NCBI RefSeq assembly: GCF_019308355.1
Contig: NZ_JAAGKM010000010.1
Span: 1 to 64,000 of the forward strand
Source: Empedobacter falsenii
GTDB lineage: Bacteria > Bacteroidota > Bacteroidia > Flavobacteriales > Weeksellaceae
DNA length: 64,000 nt
Direction of reading: 5' to 3'
Shown: one piece after another, positions 4,131 through 64,000 of the stretch
Layout: each line of letters opens with the position of its first letter
How positions within the stretch are numbered: the first letter of the stretch is position 1
Made by a program: the position numbers and the translations under genes
The notes under the pieces: generated by a model
What the model saw: only the letters and a program-made list of their open reading frames with translations
Database searches by the model: none
What the model was told of the DNA's origin: nothing

Positions 4131-5267
4131 TTACTCAATAATATGCGGAACAAAACGACTTTTATCGGTTGTAATAAATTGGTCACTTTCGCGGAACGTA
4201 ATTCCACACGATTCTTGCCCAATAATCCAACTTCCGATAATGGTATAACCTGTTTCTTCATGATGTAAATTAGCCAAAGCTTGATAAATAAAACCTTCTT
4301 CACCATATTCTCCTGAAGTTTGCTCCGAAATAGTTCCGTTTTTTACAACTTCTATATTTGCGCCTTCACGTGATAACAATGGTTTTTTGACATAATTCTT
4401 CATCTCTTTTGGTGAATCTGTATAAGCTTCTAATAATAATGGATGATCTGGATACAATTCCCATAAAATTGGTAAAATAGCTTTGTTCGAAAGAATCATT
4501 TTCCAAGCAGGTTCTATCCAATTTGCGTTGATTTCATCATTTTTGATGTTGTATGCAAACAACTCGTTCATCATCCATTCCCACGGATAAAGCTTGAAAA
4601 TATCTGTAATTGGTTTTTCTTCTAAATCAACAAAATTGACATTATTCCAACCGATTTCGTCAACGTAAATTAATTTGGTATTAATTCCGGCTTGTATCGC
4701 ACAATCTCTGATATATTCGATATTCGTCAAATCTTCTAACGATTCTCTCACGCAAGAAAAATGCAAGGTTTCACCTTTCAAATAAGGTTTTAACATTTTC
4801 CATGTTTCAATTAATTTATCGTGAACAGAATTGAATTGATCTTTTGTTTCTCCAAAATAATTTTCCATCCAAAACCATTGTACAACACCACATTCAAACA
4901 ACGAAGTAGGTGTATCAGCATTGAATTCTAACATTTTCAATTGATCATTATCGTAAGCAAAATCAAAACGTCCATAAATACTTGGCGCATCATTTTCCCA
5001 TGTATCAATCAAATAAGGTTGAATAAATTTTGGAATTTTAAATTCGTCCAAACGATTATTTTGAATCACATGTTCGACAGCATTCAAGCACATTTCCCAC
5101 AATTCGTTTGTCGCTTCAAAGATTTTATCCGCTTCTTTTTCCGAAATAGAATAGTAATAATCTTCTACCCAATAGGTTTGTTTATTTTCGTCTGTATGAT
5201 AGCCAAAGCCAATATTTTCTAACCTTTCTTGCCAGTTTTCGTCAGCTTTTATTCTTTTTAATTGCAT
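4131..5267 (-). CDS. Glutathionylspermidine synthase-fold protein (YgiC/YjfC type)
   Basis: The 378-residue protein is close in length to E. coli YgiC (386) and shows its ATP-grasp landmarks: LEFNADTPTSLFE (about 113-125), IFKLYPWEWM (about 225-234) and KPLLSREGANIEVV (about 299-312). It has only the synthetase-like domain and lacks the amidase domain of true Gsp synthetase-amidase. The E. coli paralogs YgiC and YjfC have no demonstrated glutathionylspermidine activity, so the substrate is unknown; peptide-bond formation on a polyamine or peptide is only a family-level expectation. It follows a YgiB-like lipoprotein gene by 9 bp, as in the E. coli ygiB-ygiC pair. Confidence 0.85.
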   Translation of the reverse strand: MQLKRIKADENWQERLENIGFGYHTDENKQTYWVEDYYYSISEKEADKIFEATNELWEMCLNAVEHVIQNNRLDEFKIPKFIQPYLIDTWENDAPSIYGRFDFAYDNDQLKMLEFNADTPTSLFECGVVQWFWMENYFGETKDQFNSVHDKLIETWKMLKPYLKGETLHFSCVRESLEDLTNIEYIRDCAIQAGINTKLIYVDEIGWNNVNFVDLEEKPITDIFKLYPWEWMMNELFAYNIKNDEINANWIEPAWKMILSNKAILPILWELYPDHPLLLEAYTDSPKEMKNYVKKPLLSREGANIEVVKNGTISEQTSGEYGEEGFIYQALANLHHEETGYTIIGSWIIGQESCGITFRESDQFITTDKSRFVPHIIE

Positions 5268-5276
5268 AAAATTTGT

Positions 5277-5666
5277 TTAAGATGAAACTGAACGAGAAGA
5301 AGCAGATTTTCCGAATCCACCGCGAACAGTTTGACTTTTATACGCTTGCGCTTTTGCTGCGTTTGTTCCGACGTTAGACTGTTGATGCAAACCTTGACTT
5401 GCATAGCCCATTCCGCTGCCAGTTAAGCTACGAAAAGCCATAAACCAAAGCAACGAACTTCCCATTCCACCGTGATGCGAACCACCAGAATGAGATGCAT
5501 AATTTGACGTAACATCTGTGTAAGGAGCAGTAGAATCTGCACGCATATATACCTTTTGTGCATTGTTCGTAACAGGCGCTTCTTCACGATTCATACACGA
5601 ACTAAGAACCGAAGAAATTAACACTAAAGTCACGACTTTACTTGCTCTTTTTTCTCTTTTATTCAT
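5277..5666 (-). CDS. YgiB-like (DUF1190-type) lipoprotein
   Basis: A 129-residue protein with a basic N-terminus, a hydrophobic stretch and lipobox SVLSSC (Cys about 24). The rest is Gly/Ser/His-rich, with a short hydrophobic patch SSLLWFMAFRSL and the ending VRGGFGKSASSRSVSS. That ending closely recalls the conserved VTRGGFGES tail of E. coli YgiB, and the gene sits directly upstream of a YgiC homolog, as ygiB does. The protein is much shorter than YgiB (about 220 residues). Role unknown; probably attached to an envelope membrane. Confidence 0.75.
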   Translation of the reverse strand: MNKREKRASKVVTLVLISSVLSSCMNREEAPVTNNAQKVYMRADSTAPYTDVTSNYASHSGGSHHGGMGSSLLWFMAFRSLTGSGMGYASQGLHQQSNVGTNAAKAQAYKSQTVRGGFGKSASSRSVSS

Positions 5667-59250: not shown

Positions 59251-60459
59251 ATGGAAGAGAAATTAAGCATGAGTTCACGACAAATTTTCATGCAAATTAT
59301 AGGTTATGTAAGTTTTTCATTTATAGGTTATTTACTGATAGGTTTACCTTTGGCTATTCTACCTATTTTTATTACAAAAACATTAGGTTTTACTGAGCTT
59401 GTAGCGGGTATTGTAATTAGTTTGCAATATGTGACAACTTTTATATTGAGAGGTTATGCCGGAAAAATTGTAGATACAAAAGGTCCTAAACCAGCCGTTT
59501 TATTGAGTATGAGTTTGTTTATTTTAGCTGGAGTTTTATTATACTTTTGTTACTTCACAAGAAACAATCATTTTTTGTCATTAGCTATTCTTGTACTTGC
59601 GAGATTGGTTACTGGTGCAGCAGAAGGAATGGTAGGTGGAAGTCCGATAAACTGGGCAATTTTAAAAATTGGACAACAACATACAGCGAAAGCAATTTCT
59701 TATAATGGTGTTGCTAGTTATGGTGCATTGGCAATTGGAGCACCATTGGGAGTTATCTTAAATCAATATTTTGGACTTGGTTTTATTGGTTTGTTTAGTA
59801 TTGTTTGTGCGATTATAGGTTATTTTTTAGCTAGAAATAAAGAGAATATATTAACTGCAGTTTCAAAAGTTCCGCAACCATTTATAAGTGTATTGAAAAC
59901 AGTTGCTCCTTTTGGAATTTGTTTAGCACTTGCAGGTCTTGGATTTGGAGGAATTTCCAATTTTATAACACTTTACTACGACTTTTATAGTTGGTCGAAT
60001 GCAGCTTTATGTTTAAGTGTTTTCAGTTTATTGTTTATTGCAGGACGATTATTTTTTAATAGTTCAATTAATACATTAGGAGGATTAAAAGTTGGAATTA
60101 TTTGCATGATAGTCGAAACGATAGGTTTATTAATTCTTTTTAGTGCGCCAAATTCTTTTATCGCTCTTATTGGTGCAGGTATTACAGGAATTGGTTTTTC
60201 ATTGGTTTTTCCTGCGATGGGAGTAGAGGCTGTTGCTTTGGTTTCAGATAATAGTAAAGGAGCTGCTTTAGCTGCGTATGGCTTGTTTATTGATATCTCA
60301 TTGGGAATTACAGGTCCTCTAATTGGTGGTGTTATCAGTTTGTTTGGAATGTCAAACTTATTTGGTTTTTGTAGTTTGTTTGTGTTTATAGGATTATTGT
60401 ATAGTTATTATTTACAAACAAAAAAAAATCGTTCAGAATTTAATAATTCCGAACGATAA
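59251..60459 (+). CDS. MFS transporter (YfcJ/YhhS-like)
   Basis: A 402-residue inner-membrane transporter with twelve hydrophobic helices. The loop 2-3 motif is GYAGKIVDTKGPKP (about 70-83) and a charged helix-4 motif LARLVTGAAEGMVGGSPINW (about 121-140) is visible, as in the YfcJ/YhhS branch of predicted exporters. Substrate unknown. The open frame begins at TTG 59239; ATG 59251 (MEEKLSMSSRQ) fits the promoter distance better. Its last 20 bases overlap the end of the converging DUF5715 gene. Confidence 0.88.
   Translation: MEEKLSMSSRQIFMQIIGYVSFSFIGYLLIGLPLAILPIFITKTLGFTELVAGIVISLQYVTTFILRGYAGKIVDTKGPKPAVLLSMSLFILAGVLLYFCYFTRNNHFLSLAILVLARLVTGAAEGMVGGSPINWAILKIGQQHTAKAISYNGVASYGALAIGAPLGVILNQYFGLGFIGLFSIVCAIIGYFLARNKENILTAVSKVPQPFISVLKTVAPFGICLALAGLGFGGISNFITLYYDFYSWSNAALCLSVFSLLFIAGRLFFNSSINTLGGLKVGIICMIVETIGLLILFSAPNSFIALIGAGITGIGFSLVFPAMGVEAVALVSDNSKGAALAAYGLFIDISLGITGPLIGGVISLFGMSNLFGFCSLFVFIGLLYSYYLQTKKNRSEFNNSER
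60421..60457 (-). terminator. Minus-strand terminator lying inside the end of the MFS gene
   Basis: A 13-bp stem (60428-60440 with 60445-60457) with one G-T wobble on the minus strand, followed there by a run of eight U. It stops the DUF5715 transcript but its DNA also codes the last residues of the MFS protein. Confidence 0.85.
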
Positions 60460-61021
60460 TATGAAAACATCTAATTTTAGATTCTTTTACGTAGTAAATT
60501 TTACCTGTTCTAACATAATTTTTTAGCACTTGTTCTAACTCTTTTTCTAGTTTAGAATCAGGTCTAATTTTATGATTAAACCTAACATAAGAAATATCAA
60601 AAGCAGCACCAAAATTATGTGAACTATCATTAGAAGAAGCATTTTTATTAATTCCTCTCAAACGATTTTGATCATGTAGCGTTCGTGTCATTGATGTAAC
60701 AACGAAAAAATTTTGACCTGTTGTTTTTACAAAATCTCTTGCAATACTTGTCAAAATATCTCGACCTTTTGGAATAAGATACGAATGACTATGCGTTAAA
60801 TCACCAACTCGCCAACCATAACCACGTTGTTTTATTTTAACCAATTTACCTTGATTGATATATTTGTTCAACTTTTTATCACCATCAATTAGCTCAAGTT
60901 TATGAGATTTTGCGGCATTCAAATGCTGAACATATTCTTTAGAAGGTTCTATAATAACTCGAGATTGAGCGTAACCGAATAAAGAAGAGCAAATAAAAAA
61001 AGTTGTTAAAAATTGTTTCAT
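60440..61021 (-). CDS. DUF5715 protein, M15/LAS-type metallopeptidase-like (copy 1)
   Basis: A 193-residue exported protein with signal peptide (1-18, ending GYAQ). The C-terminal half has TSMTRTLHDQNRL, SSHNFGAAFDISYV (HxxxxxxD zinc-site pattern) and CFHIIV, the arrangement of LAS-type D,D- and L,D-carboxypeptidases that trim peptidoglycan. Family DUF5715 is little studied. Paralog lies 43 bp upstream, so they may be one operon or a duplication. Overlaps the converging MFS gene by 20 bases. Confidence 0.8.
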   Translation of the reverse strand: MKQFLTTFFICSSLFGYAQSRVIIEPSKEYVQHLNAAKSHKLELIDGDKKLNKYINQGKLVKIKQRGYGWRVGDLTHSHSYLIPKGRDILTSIARDFVKTTGQNFFVVTSMTRTLHDQNRLRGINKNASSNDSSHNFGAAFDISYVRFNHKIRPDSKLEKELEQVLKNYVRTGKIYYVKESKIRCFHIIVRNY

Positions 61022-61064
61022 GATTCAATTCTCTTCTGCAAAAATAGAAAAGAACTTTTATATA

Positions 61065-61709
61065 TTACATTGTTGTTGATTTAAATTGATCGGGATTACG
61101 AACCGTTACATGAAAACAGTGTTGTCTATATTCTTTGATATAGTAAATTTTACCGTCTTCTTGCAATTGTTTTAAAATCGCTTCTAAATTATCACGATGA
61201 GTTTTGCTATACGTATATTTATTATTGAATTTTGTATACGACAAATCAAAAGAAGCACCATAGTTATGAGAACTTTCGCCTTTTGCTGCATTGCTATTTA
61301 CTCGTCTTAAACTTGCTTGACTTTCTTCAGAACGGGTAAGCGAAGTTACAGTAATTGTAGCATTGTTTTCGTCCAGAAATTTTGAAGCAATTCGTTCCAA
61401 CACAGTTTTTGCTCTGTTATTTAAAAAAGCTTTACTGTGTGTTAATTTCTCAATTGTGTACCCATTTCCTTCTTCAGGAATTGCAACTAATTTTTTTGTA
61501 GCAACTAAACCTTCAATATCATCAAAACTCTTCACGATTGGAATGTTGAATGATTCTGCTGCCATTAAATGATCGTCATAAGTTACTTTTTTTGTAGAGA
61601 TAGAAGTGGATGAAGAGGCAGAATTTTCTGCTAAAATGTAACTTTCTTGACTTTGAGCTGAAATAAATATTCCGCTAAAAAGACAAGAAAGGGCAATTAA
61701 TTTTTTCAT
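61065..61709 (-). CDS. DUF5715 protein, M15/LAS-type metallopeptidase-like (copy 2)
   Basis: A 214-residue exported protein, signal peptide 1-18 (ISAQS), paralogous to the next gene downstream: TSLTRSEESQASLRRV, SSHNYGASFDLSYTKF with His and Asp of a zinc site, and CFHVTVRN near the end. It differs by a longer N-terminal Ser/Thr-rich segment (about 20-45) and in the middle domain. Likely acts on peptidoglycan in the periplasm; no substrate has been shown to my knowledge. Confidence 0.8.
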   Translation of the reverse strand: MKKLIALSCLFSGIFISAQSQESYILAENSASSSTSISTKKVTYDDHLMAAESFNIPIVKSFDDIEGLVATKKLVAIPEEGNGYTIEKLTHSKAFLNNRAKTVLERIASKFLDENNATITVTSLTRSEESQASLRRVNSNAAKGESSHNYGASFDLSYTKFNNKYTYSKTHRDNLEAILKQLQEDGKIYYIKEYRQHCFHVTVRNPDQFKSTTM

Positions 61710-61924
61710 GTTTTAAATTATTACGCGACAAAATTAGAAGTTACAATTTAATAAAGACTTGTTAAAAATTATAATATTTAGGTAAACTTTTTTTAAAATT
61801 TTCTTAAATCTGTTCTCAAAATAGCATTGCTAGATAGATTGATAGAAATTTAAATTTCATCACATTTGAAACATAAAATATTCTTAAATATAAATTCTAA
61901 TAGATTAAATCCTACTAAATTCGC
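61710..61924. other. Intergenic region, no gene seen
   Basis: AT-rich DNA between the divergent DUF5715 and aguB genes; both promoters must lie here and only the aguB -7 element is clear. Confidence 0.6.
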
Positions 61925-61932
61925 TATTTTTG
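61925..61932 (+). promoter_or_regulatory. -7 promoter element of the aguB-bla-aguA operon
   Basis: TAttTTTG, an exact consensus match 39 nt before the aguB ATG; no clear -33 TTG at the usual distance. Confidence 0.55.
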
Positions 61933-61971
61933 TAATTATTATTCATTTTTATTTTTAGACCTATTTATAAA

Positions 61972-62847
61972 ATGGCAAAAGTTAAAGTTGGAATGGTACA
62001 AATGACTTGTACTAATAACAAACAAGAAAATTTAAACAAAGCAATAGAGCAAGTAAAAGTAGCAGCTGCAAAAGGCGCTCAAATTGTGTGTTTGCAAGAA
62101 TTGTTTACCTCATTATATTTCTGTGACGTAGAAGATTACGATAATTTCGACTTAGCAGAAGCAATTCCTGGACCATCAACAGATGCGTTATCAGTTGTAG
62201 CTAAAGAATTGGGAGTGGTAATTATCGCTTCATTATTCGAAAAACGTGCGCAAGGTTTATATCACAATACAACCGCTATTTTAGATGCTGATGGACAATA
62301 TTTAGGAAAATATCGCAAAATGCATATCCCAGATGATCCTGCGTTTTATGAAAAATTCTATTTTACTCCAGGTGATTTAGGTTACAAAGTTTTTGATACT
62401 AAATTTGGAAAAATTGGAGTGTTAATTTGTTGGGATCAGTGGTATCCAGAAGCTTCTCGTATAACAGCATTGATGGGAGCAGAAATTTTATTTTATCCTA
62501 CTGCGATTGGTTGGGATACGACGCAAGACGAAGAAACAAATCAAGATCAATACAATGCTTGGCAAACAATTCAGCGTTCACATGCGGTTGCGAATGGAGT
62601 TCCGGTTATTTCTGTAAATCGTGTTGGTTTTGAGCAAGATGGAGCAATGAAGTTCTGGGGAGGCTCTTTTGCGACAAATGCGCAGGGAAAATTGTTGTAC
62701 TTAGCAACGCATGATAAAGAGGAAACAGAAGTGGTTGAATTGGATTTGAACGAATCTGATTTCTTCCGTAAACACTGGCCTTTCTTAAGAGATCGCCGCA
62801 TCGATTCTTATCAACCAATTACAAAACGTTTTATAGACGAGGATTAA
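61972..62847 (+). CDS. aguB: N-carbamoylputrescine amidase
   Basis: AguB hydrolyses N-carbamoylputrescine to putrescine, CO2 and ammonia, the last step from agmatine to putrescine. The 291-residue nitrilase-fold enzyme has the complete Glu-Lys-Cys triad: Glu43 (CLQELFTSLYF), Lys116 (YRKMHIPDDP) and Cys153 (LICWDQWYPEASR). The DQWYPEAS context and HIPDDPAFYEKFYF distinguish AguB from other nitrilases. It is the first gene of the operon and its TAA overlaps the ATG of the next gene by one base. Confidence 0.95.
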   Translation: MAKVKVGMVQMTCTNNKQENLNKAIEQVKVAAAKGAQIVCLQELFTSLYFCDVEDYDNFDLAEAIPGPSTDALSVVAKELGVVIIASLFEKRAQGLYHNTTAILDADGQYLGKYRKMHIPDDPAFYEKFYFTPGDLGYKVFDTKFGKIGVLICWDQWYPEASRITALMGAEILFYPTAIGWDTTQDEETNQDQYNAWQTIQRSHAVANGVPVISVNRVGFEQDGAMKFWGGSFATNAQGKLLYLATHDKEETEVVELDLNESDFFRKHWPFLRDRRIDSYQPITKRFIDED

Positions 62848-63554
62848 TGAAGAAATTATTTTCACTTATAGCATTGATAGGAAGTTTTGCATTTGGTCAA
62901 ATAAAACCAATTCAGATTGATCCGATTAATAACAATTTATTTGTTTATCAAACATTCAATTCGTTTAATGGTGTTGAGTATAATGCAAATGGAATGTATT
63001 TGGTAACGAATAAAGGAATCGTTTTGTTTGATGTTCCTTGGCAGAAATCGCAATATCAAGAATTAAATGATATGTTGCAAGAAAAGTATAATTTGCCAGT
63101 TATCGCTGTGTTTGCAACACATTCGCATGATGATAGAGCAGGAGATTTAAGTTTTTATAATGATTTGAATATTCCTACTTATGCAACTTCTTTAACCAAT
63201 TCTAAATTAAAAAAAGAAGGAAAAGCGACTTCGAAATTTGAGATTGAATTAGGAAAAACATACAAATTTGGTAATGAAAAATTTGTTGTTGAATATTTTG
63301 GTGAAGGACATACTTCTGATAATGTTGTGGTTTGGTTTCCAAAATATAAAGTGCTGAATGGAGGTTGTTTGATAAAAGGTGCTGACGCTGTAAATTTAGG
63401 TTACACAGGTGAAGCAAATGTTACTGAATGGCCAAAAACAGTACAGAAATTAGTTACAAAACATCCAAAAATTAAACAAGTTATTCCAGGTCATGATAAT
63501 TGGAAAGTTACTGGACATATCGAAAATACGTTTAAACTTTTAGAAAAGAAATAA
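62847..63554 (+). CDS. blaEBR: Subclass B1 metallo-beta-lactamase, EBR-like carbapenemase
   Basis: A 235-residue periplasmic zinc beta-lactamase that opens beta-lactam rings including carbapenems in its family. Signal peptide 1-17 (AFGQ). All B1 ligands are present: Zn1 His92, His94 (ATHSHDDRAGD) and His155 (GEGHTSDN); Zn2 Asp96, Cys174 (NGGCLIKG) and His216 (PGHDNWK); Lys177 binds the substrate carboxylate. I match it to EBR enzymes of Empedobacter from memory; the allele cannot be named without a search. The ATG overlaps the aguB stop (TAATG), and aguA follows two bases after its stop, so it is expressed as part of an agmatine operon. Confidence 0.93.
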   Translation: MKKLFSLIALIGSFAFGQIKPIQIDPINNNLFVYQTFNSFNGVEYNANGMYLVTNKGIVLFDVPWQKSQYQELNDMLQEKYNLPVIAVFATHSHDDRAGDLSFYNDLNIPTYATSLTNSKLKKEGKATSKFEIELGKTYKFGNEKFVVEYFGEGHTSDNVVVWFPKYKVLNGGCLIKGADAVNLGYTGEANVTEWPKTVQKLVTKHPKIKQVIPGHDNWKVTGHIENTFKLLEKK

Positions 63555-63556
63555 AA

Positions 63557-64000
63557 TTGAACACTATAGATACATCAAAATTCCCAAAAGATTTAGGATA
63601 TAGATTTCCTGCCGAATGGGAAGAACACGAAGCAACATGGTTGTCTTGGCCGCACAAAGAAGAATCTTGGCCAGATCGTATTCAGTTAATTTATCCAGCT
63701 TATGCTGAATTTATTGCTGAATTATCGAAAGGTGAAAAGGTTCGTATTAATGTGAAAGATGAAGAAATGAAAGTGTTTGCGTTGTCTTTTATCGAAAAAA
63801 CGGATGCAGATTTGTCACAAGTTGAGTTTTATTTTAATGAAACAAATGATGCATGGTGTCGCGATCATGGTCCTGCATTTTTATTGAATAAAAACAATCC
63901 TGATAACCCAAAAGTTATTGTTGATTGGGGATTCAATGCGTGGGGAGGAAAATATCCACCTTTCGAAAATGATGATGTTGTGCCAACAAGAATTGGTGCA
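63557..64000 (+). CDS. aguA: Agmatine deiminase, N-terminal part (cut by window end)
   Basis: AguA converts agmatine to N-carbamoylputrescine, the substrate of AguB. Only the first 148 codons are inside the window: TTSKFPKDLGYRFPAEWEEH-type start (from TTG 63557, two bases after the beta-lactamase stop), the EATWLSWPHKEESWP block and NDAWCRDHGPAFLL with the substrate-binding Asp-His-Gly. These match the peptidyl-arginine-deiminase-like family. The TTG start follows the stop codon directly and no ATG or GTG is available before the conserved sequence, so it is chosen. Confidence 0.93.
   Translation, partial: MNTIDTSKFPKDLGYRFPAEWEEHEATWLSWPHKEESWPDRIQLIYPAYAEFIAELSKGEKVRINVKDEEMKVFALSFIEKTDADLSQVEFYFNETNDAWCRDHGPAFLLNKNNPDNPKVIVDWGFNAWGGKYPPFENDDVVPTRIGA

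What the first reader, a model, noticed from the sequence alone, without database searches (positions are those of the whole stretch)
61972..64000. Metallo-beta-lactamase gene embedded in the agmatine-to-putrescine operon
The carbapenemase gene overlaps aguB by one base (TAATG) and ends two bases before aguA. It has no promoter, terminator, repeat or IS of its own. The arrangement implies that resistance level is set by the promoter and regulation of a polyamine pathway, and that the gene is a long-resident part of the chromosome. Whether the order aguB-bla-aguA is shared by all Empedobacter is not known to me.
Basis: partly seen in the sequence, partly recalled or inferred. Interest (0 to 1): 0.7.

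Follow-up and report, generated by a model that had tools for sequence, protein, structure and literature searches.

The report
Carbapenemase in swappable polyamine-operon slot
A carbapenem-destroying enzyme gene sits between two polyamine-pathway genes in all 14 held species of its genus, and the same junction seems to be a slot in which unrelated single genes come and go in related bacteria, so the place is old but the resistance gene in it can be exchanged.

Summary
The rough location was already in print (PMC11475475). Two things appear new. (1) The occupant is not one lineage: seven species, the window's included, carry EBR; seven carry another B1 enzyme (group means 52-57% identical to EBR, all under NCBI's EBR cut-off). 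The enzyme's history conflicts with rpoB, gyrB and the neighbouring DUF5715 genes, so an exchange inside the slot is likely, not proven. (2) The aguB|aguA junction is a recurrent slot: 27 of 52 scorable genomes hold an insert ORF. In one related genus it holds a YhcG-type nuclease, a four-helix protein, a membrane protein, a small ORF, or once a B1 enzyme that still has a 49-bp yhcG remnant behind it. 'Long-resident' therefore fits the slot better than the allele. Co-transcription, regulation and the recombination route are inferred, not shown.

The parts
61925..61932 (+). TAnnTTTG element before aguB, candidate -7 promoter element of Bacteroidetes type (consensus recalled, from no call)
   Evidence: Present at -42 to -49 from the aguB start in 14 of 14 genomes; a TTG 17-23 bases further upstream in only 2 of 14
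61972..62847 (+). aguB-like gene (N-carbamoylputrescine amidase-like, carbon-nitrogen hydrolase)
   Evidence: PF00795 205 bits; TIGR03381 318.6 bits, under cut-off 410.25
62847..63554 (+). bla, EBR family subclass B1 metallo-beta-lactamase, the occupant of the slot
   Evidence: NF000444 524.5 bits, cut-off 475; HxHxD, GHTSD, GGCL and GHDNW motifs present
63557..64000 (+). aguA-like gene (agmatine deiminase-like), 5' part; runs on to 64618 on the contig
   Evidence: PF04371; full-length ORF TIGR03380 275 bits, under cut-off 381.8; TTG start in 14 of 14 genomes
61065..61709 (-). DUF5715 gene, divergent neighbour, used as a fast-evolving control; not part of the unit
   Evidence: PF18979; identities

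Best explanation
The gene is an intact-looking chromosomal EBR-type B1 metallo-beta-lactamase, carried as the middle gene of a three-gene polyamine unit. It is most likely transcribed from a promoter before aguB and translated in coupling with the aguB stop codon (both inferred). The aguB|aguA junction is a recurrent cargo slot in the family: conserved flanks hold one gene, sometimes two, and the gene can be replaced while the flanks stay (shown by comparison; clearest from the scar in G101). The likely route is homologous recombination of incoming DNA in the flanking genes, with no recombinase at the site (inferred). In the window's lineage EBR most likely displaced an older, different B1 enzyme in the same slot (likely, not proven).
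For: aguB-bla-aguA in 14 of 14 genomes. EBR model passed by 7 of 7 in one group (500.7-524.5 bits) and by 0 of 7 in the other (294.3-337.1). G099 and G104 group with the EBR species by gyrB+rpoB (100/100; each gene alone) and by DUF5715 (80.3 and 83.1% against 47.9% for the G044 group), but their enzymes are nearer the G044 group (67.4, 66.5%) than EBR (57.2, 53.5%). The species grouping is rejected for bla in the rooted sets (p 0.0035; p 0.013); 0 of 1000 resamplings reverse the distance order. Slot inserts in 27 of 52 scorable genomes. In g9 the pair is interrupted in 11 of 19 cases against 16 of 145 for 12 other conserved pairs. Occupancy changes at least 5 and cargo at least 10 times on the g9 tree. 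A 49-bp yhcG 3' remnant (44 of 49 identical) lies between bla and aguA in G101.
Against: One clade of all genus enzymes is not rejected (p 0.0925; p 0.169). Without outgroups the species split is not rejected (p 0.060 protein, 0.236 DNA). Synonymous distance of bla is much like that of the flanks (for example G000-G099 1.17 against 0.92 and 0.98), which a distant import would not predict unless dS is saturated. The EBR lineage lies slightly farther from the outgroups than most of the other group (1.97 against 1.78-1.88, G061 2.10). aguA and aguB show no significant conflict with the species tree (p 0.257, 0.231), so raised recombination in the flanks is not shown. Three of the 12 control pairs are also interrupted (5 of 14, 7 of 20, 4 of 18). 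No transcript data.
Confidence: 0.62

Rival explanations
1. One B1 gene entered the slot in the ancestor of the genus and was inherited vertically; its protein changed very fast, most of all before the EBR radiation. No exchange took place in the genus.
For: One clade of the 14 enzymes is not rejected; the unrooted species split is not rejected; dS of bla is like that of its flanks while dN is high; the start codon of aguA and the slot are the same in both groups.
Against: The fast neighbour DUF5715 keeps the species order and bla does not; the rooted tests reject the species grouping; EBR is only slightly farther from outgroups, too little for its long stem.
Confidence: 0.22
2. The genus ancestor had two B1 genes in tandem in the slot; different lineages lost different copies.
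For: The slot can hold two genes (G104).
Against: None of the 14 genomes has two B1 genes there; each has one match in the whole genome. The second gene of G104 is a membrane protein.
Confidence: 0.1
3. bla has its own promoter inside aguB, so the operon position does not set its expression.
For: A TAnnTTTG match inside aguB at +428 in 10 of 14 genomes; internal promoters are common in bacteria (recalled).
Against: No internal site is kept in 14 of 14, and +428 lies about 450 bases before bla in coding sequence; sigma-70-like hits are at chance level.
Confidence: 0.15
4. The linkage is functional: the enzyme is kept in this unit because beta-lactam defence and polyamine synthesis gain from joint control.
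For: Kept in 14 of 14 species; B1 enzymes also occupy the slot in G101 and in record L062.
Against: The slot also takes genes of unrelated kinds; related enzymes in Chryseobacterium lie elsewhere.
Confidence: 0.12

Closest known systems
EBR metallo-beta-lactamases of Empedobacter (PMC10101081 for EBR-5; PMC11475475 for the genetic context)
   Same: The window gene is an EBR by NCBIfam. G109 carries bla where PMC10101081 places EBR-5. PMC11475475 reports blaEBR conserved beside the agmatine deiminase gene (passages).
   Different: That paper names a 'hypothetical gene I' on the other side; its figure was not seen. The second enzyme lineage, the slot in other genera and the scar are in none of the passages seen.
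IND/CGB-type and BlaB B1 enzymes of Chryseobacterium and relatives
   Same: Same broad model NF012146; IND-type enzymes are the sister of EBR in the tree (97/93).
   Different: Not in the aguB-aguA junction: 0 of 24 Chryseobacterium loci had either gene in the flanks held.
[quoted passage not shown]
   Same: Conserved flanks, rapid turnover of contents, no mobile element seen at the window site.
   Different: Here the site is inside a two-gene operon and holds one gene, sometimes two; the paper notes that genes rarely integrate within operons. Raised recombination in the flanks was not shown.

Membership tests
EBR family subclass B1 metallo-beta-lactamase | Score over the curated NCBIfam cut-off (475 bits) | tested here: met
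   524.5 bits
EBR family subclass B1 metallo-beta-lactamase | B1 zinc-binding motifs (HxHxD, second His, Cys, third His) | tested here: met
   HSHDD 92, GEGHTSD 152, GGCL 172, GHDNW 215; assignment of the motifs to zinc sites recalled
EBR family subclass B1 metallo-beta-lactamase | Carbapenem hydrolysis | not testable with these tools
   Shown for EBR-5 in PMC10101081, not for this protein
EBR family (the other seven occupants of the slot in the genus) | Score over the curated NCBIfam cut-off (475 bits) | tested here: not met
   294.3-337.1 bits, 7 of 7 under
AguB N-carbamoylputrescine amidase (TIGR03381) | Score over the equivalog cut-off | tested here: not met
   318.6 against 410.25; best match all the same, so named aguB-like
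AguA agmatine deiminase (TIGR03380) | Score over the equivalog cut-off | tested here: not met
   275 against 381.8 for the full ORF; named aguA-like
Operon | Same strand, overlapping or near-touching ends, no terminator between | tested here: met
Operon | Single transcript over aguB-bla-aguA | not testable with these tools
   No RNA data
Recombination-driven hotspot at core genes (PMC5635113) | Turnover of contents between conserved flanks | tested here: met
   27 of 52 occupied, several unrelated cargoes; at least 10 cargo changes on the g9 tree
Recombination-driven hotspot at core genes (PMC5635113) | Raised homologous recombination in the flanking genes | tested here: inconclusive
   aguA and aguB trees not in significant conflict; occupied and empty g9 slots differ in the aguA N-terminus, 11 of 11 against 9 of 9
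Mobile element carriage (IS, transposon, plasmid) | Repeats or close copies on plasmids | tested here: not met
   No direct repeats of 16 bp or more in 61800-64000; 2710 plasmid records matched, every one under 60% identity

The most novel reading that the evidence does not exclude
The aguB|aguA junction of this family is an intra-operon cargo slot without a recombinase of its own. It swaps single genes, including resistance enzymes and a candidate anti-phage nuclease, between species by recombination in two housekeeping genes, so that each newcomer is at once expressed from a polyamine promoter.
Probability: 0.5. Interest if true: 0.68.

Novelty: new variant of a known kind. Interest (0 to 1): 0.54.

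Why it matters
If true, it explains how an intrinsic carbapenemase can be present in every held species of a genus and yet not be one inherited gene: the place is inherited and the gene is exchanged. It shows an insertion hotspot inside an operon, where insertions are reported to be rare (PMC5635113, passage). It also gives a simple surveillance handle: reading the aguB-aguA interval finds B1 enzymes that the EBR model does not call, as in seven species here.

Tried and rejected
Own promoter or terminator for bla: scans at chance level. RNA element: none at gathering scores. Repeats at the borders: none in the window; between the two sides of 13 occupied slots (11 of g9, one of g21, one of g11) the longest exact direct repeats are 7-9 bases, which I take for chance. 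Plasmid copies: 2710 records, all under 60% identity. Cargo remnants in the short spacers of g28: the strong matches to the genus g1 intervals fall on the aguA start region; the rest were short and weak. Linkage in other families: of the f3 genomes listed with both genes none has them within 40 kb by the printed coordinates; the 32 f3 genomes with a distant aguB (53-57%) were not scored for their interval.

Literature: eight searches, open-licence PMC only. One paper holds both blaEBR and agmatine; none listed describes exchange in this slot, and I opened only a few. Seen: PMC10101081 part 1 of 2 of the text; PMC11475475, PMC12925461, PMC10135574, PMC5635113 found passages; PMC10653852 outline and abstract; Riemerella competence papers search listing only.

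On rechecking I corrected the count of interrupted control pairs (three, not two), added the missing -33 partner and the unscored f3 genomes; odds of the main reading were set anew within 0.05 of what I intended.

Full report
WHAT IS THERE. The contig is 80301 bases long and aguA ends at 64618 on it. The neighbours on both sides (DUF5715 at 61065-61709 and an ORF at 64693-65460) lie on the other strand, so the unit is three genes. bla is EBR by NCBIfam (524.5 bits, cut-off 475). Its partners match AguB and AguA best but stay under the equivalog cut-offs. An arginine-decarboxylase-like gene lies elsewhere in 14 of 14 genomes, 0 of 14 over the speA cut-off (one checked). Together with the published role of N-carbamoylputrescine amidase in spermidine synthesis of Bacteroides thetaiotaomicron (PMC10135574, passages) this suggests a biosynthetic unit. 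That is inference.

HOW FAR IT REACHES. Fourteen genomes of the genus are held, the window's included, and 14 of 14 have aguB-bla-aguA with one such enzyme per genome. Five of them were also found as named records with the same order: E. tilapiae, E. sedimenti, E. stercoris, E. brevis and Weeksellaceae bacterium MIP2422. G109 has bla at the coordinates that PMC10101081 gives for EBR-5. The start of bla against the aguB stop varies: a one-base overlap in four EBR species, gaps of 8, 8 and 11 bases in the other three, and an 11-base overlap at the first ATG in the seven others. aguA starts with TTG in 14 of 14, and in 3 of 3 genomes of genus g28 that have no bla there. In G104 a second ORF, a membrane protein distantly like one of the g9 cargoes (25.5% over 239 aa, E about 1e-5), stands between bla and aguA. 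PMC11475475 had already reported that blaEBR is conserved beside the agmatine deiminase gene (passages).

EXPRESSION. Before aguB one TAnnTTTG element is kept at -42 to -49 in 14 of 14 genomes; a TTG at the expected distance upstream is present in only 2 of 14. Inside aguB no such element is kept in all; the best is +428 in 10 of 14. The consensus is recalled. No terminator-like site separates the genes. I infer one transcript and coupled translation; neither is shown.

TWO ENZYME LINEAGES IN ONE SLOT. Seven species (G000, the window; G092, G117, G125, G109, G113, G121) pass the EBR cut-off with 500.7-524.5 bits; the other seven (G021, G044, G073, G083, G099, G104, G061) score 294.3-337.1. Group means of identity between the two sets are 51.6-57.2%. 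By gyrB+rpoB DNA, G099 and G104 belong with the EBR species (100/100; each gene alone starred). Their enzymes do not: G099 and G104 are 67.4 and 66.5% identical to the G044 group but 57.2 and 53.5% to EBR. The DUF5715 genes next door keep the species order (EBR species to G099, G104, G044 group: 80.3, 83.1, 47.9%; second copy 71.5, 78.0, 62.6%). In the 44-row protein tree EBR stands with Chryseobacterium enzymes and G101 (97/93), the other seven with two Sphingobacterium sequences (98/95). Holding EBR with G099 and G104 is rejected with p 0.0035, and with p 0.013 in a 37-row set from which seven rows were dropped (two Sphingobacterium, L062, G061, G101, two outgroup rows). In 1000 resamplings of 234 columns the distance order never reversed.

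RESULTS AGAINST THIS. One clade of all genus enzymes is not rejected (p 0.0925; p 0.169). Without outgroups the species split is not rejected (p 0.060 protein, 0.236 DNA). dS of bla is about that of its flanks; near 1 in such A+T-rich DNA it may be saturated. The EBR set is slightly farther from outgroups than most of the other set. aguA and aguB do not conflict significantly with the species tree. I read this as: exchange within the slot likely, donor unknown.

A SLOT, NOT ONLY A GENE. Sixty-two genomes have a close aguB (58 of 148, three more, one more, G352). In 52 aguA is near enough to score; not scored are eight of g17, G003 and G149. An insert ORF (60 aa or more) lies in 27 of 52: g1 14 of 14, g9 11 of 22, g11 1 of 6, g21 1 of 4, g28 0 of 3, others 0 of 3. 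Record L062, labelled a Pedobacter MAG, has a B1 enzyme there too. The g9 cargoes are a DUF1016/YhcG nuclease in four, a membrane protein without Pfam match in three, a 23S-rRNA-intervening-sequence-type protein in two, a small ORF in one, and a B1 enzyme in one, G101; the g21 insert is also YhcG-like. One representative of each was scanned with Pfam; the YhcG one matches PADLOC candidate defence family PDC-S02. G101 is the only one of 23 g9 genomes with a BlaB/IND-type enzyme at E 1e-20 or better.

CONTROL. In 20 of the 23 g9 genomes, 20 kb each (G146, G148, G149 left out), the aguB-aguA pair is interrupted in 11 of the 19 counted, and 12 other conserved same-strand pairs in 16 of 145 (Fisher p 1.1e-5, not corrected for kinship). 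Three of those 12 pairs are also interrupted (5 of 14, 7 of 20, 4 of 18), one of them at least partly by a gene that is itself conserved, so the region may be permissive as a whole. On a tree of four flanking proteins occupancy changes at least 5 times and cargo at least 10. Occupied slots go with another aguA N-terminus than empty ones, 11 of 11 against 9 of 9, as if slot and aguA start travel together.

A SCAR. In G101, 49 bases between bla and aguA match the 3' end of yhcG of G054 at 44 positions (score 73; highest of 500 shuffles 27). The enzyme gene most simply stands where yhcG stood. This is the clearest single sign of replacement in the slot.

MECHANISM. The published model that fits is recombination between flanking core genes at sites without mobile elements; [quoted passage not shown] Competence is reported for Riemerella (listing only); that it belongs to the same family is recalled. 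Raised recombination in aguA or aguB was not shown.

VERDICT. Observation confirmed; interpretation partly supported. Known: EBR and its rough location. Apparently new, within the searches made: the order in all held species, the second enzyme lineage in the same place, the slot in other genera, and the scar.

Noticed in passing
L061 and L066 (Sphingobacterium), ORF of 824 aa whose last ~220 aa are the match at 5001-5666: A B1-type metallo-beta-lactamase domain forms the C-terminal part of a long ORF with an unrelated N-terminal part that looks like a glycoside hydrolase (from its letters, not scanned); a possible natural fusion.
   Followed up: partly
L008 1501-3316: In G084 an IND-like bla has a distant agmatine-deiminase-like ORF (34% to aguA) directly upstream on the same strand; chance or a second linkage is unknown.
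   Followed up: no
G021, G044, G061, G073, G083, G099, G104 (slot loci): Seven species carry B1 enzymes with the usual metal-binding motifs that stay under the EBR cut-off; of the models listed for four of them, only the broad B1 and BlaB/IND/MUS models are passed.
   Followed up: partly
L062 4076-6697: A record labelled Pedobacter sp. MAG (G+C 0.41) carries aguB (88%), a B1 enzyme and aguA (67%) in the same order; mis-binning or transfer not resolved.
   Followed up: no
window 60440-61709: Two adjacent DUF5715 genes of unknown function on the minus strand, kept near aguB in most of the genus and evolving much faster than aguB.
   Followed up: partly
L178 8128-8844 (G104): A second cargo gene, a membrane protein, sits behind bla in the slot and is a distant relative of a g9 cargo (25.5%).
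   Followed up: partly
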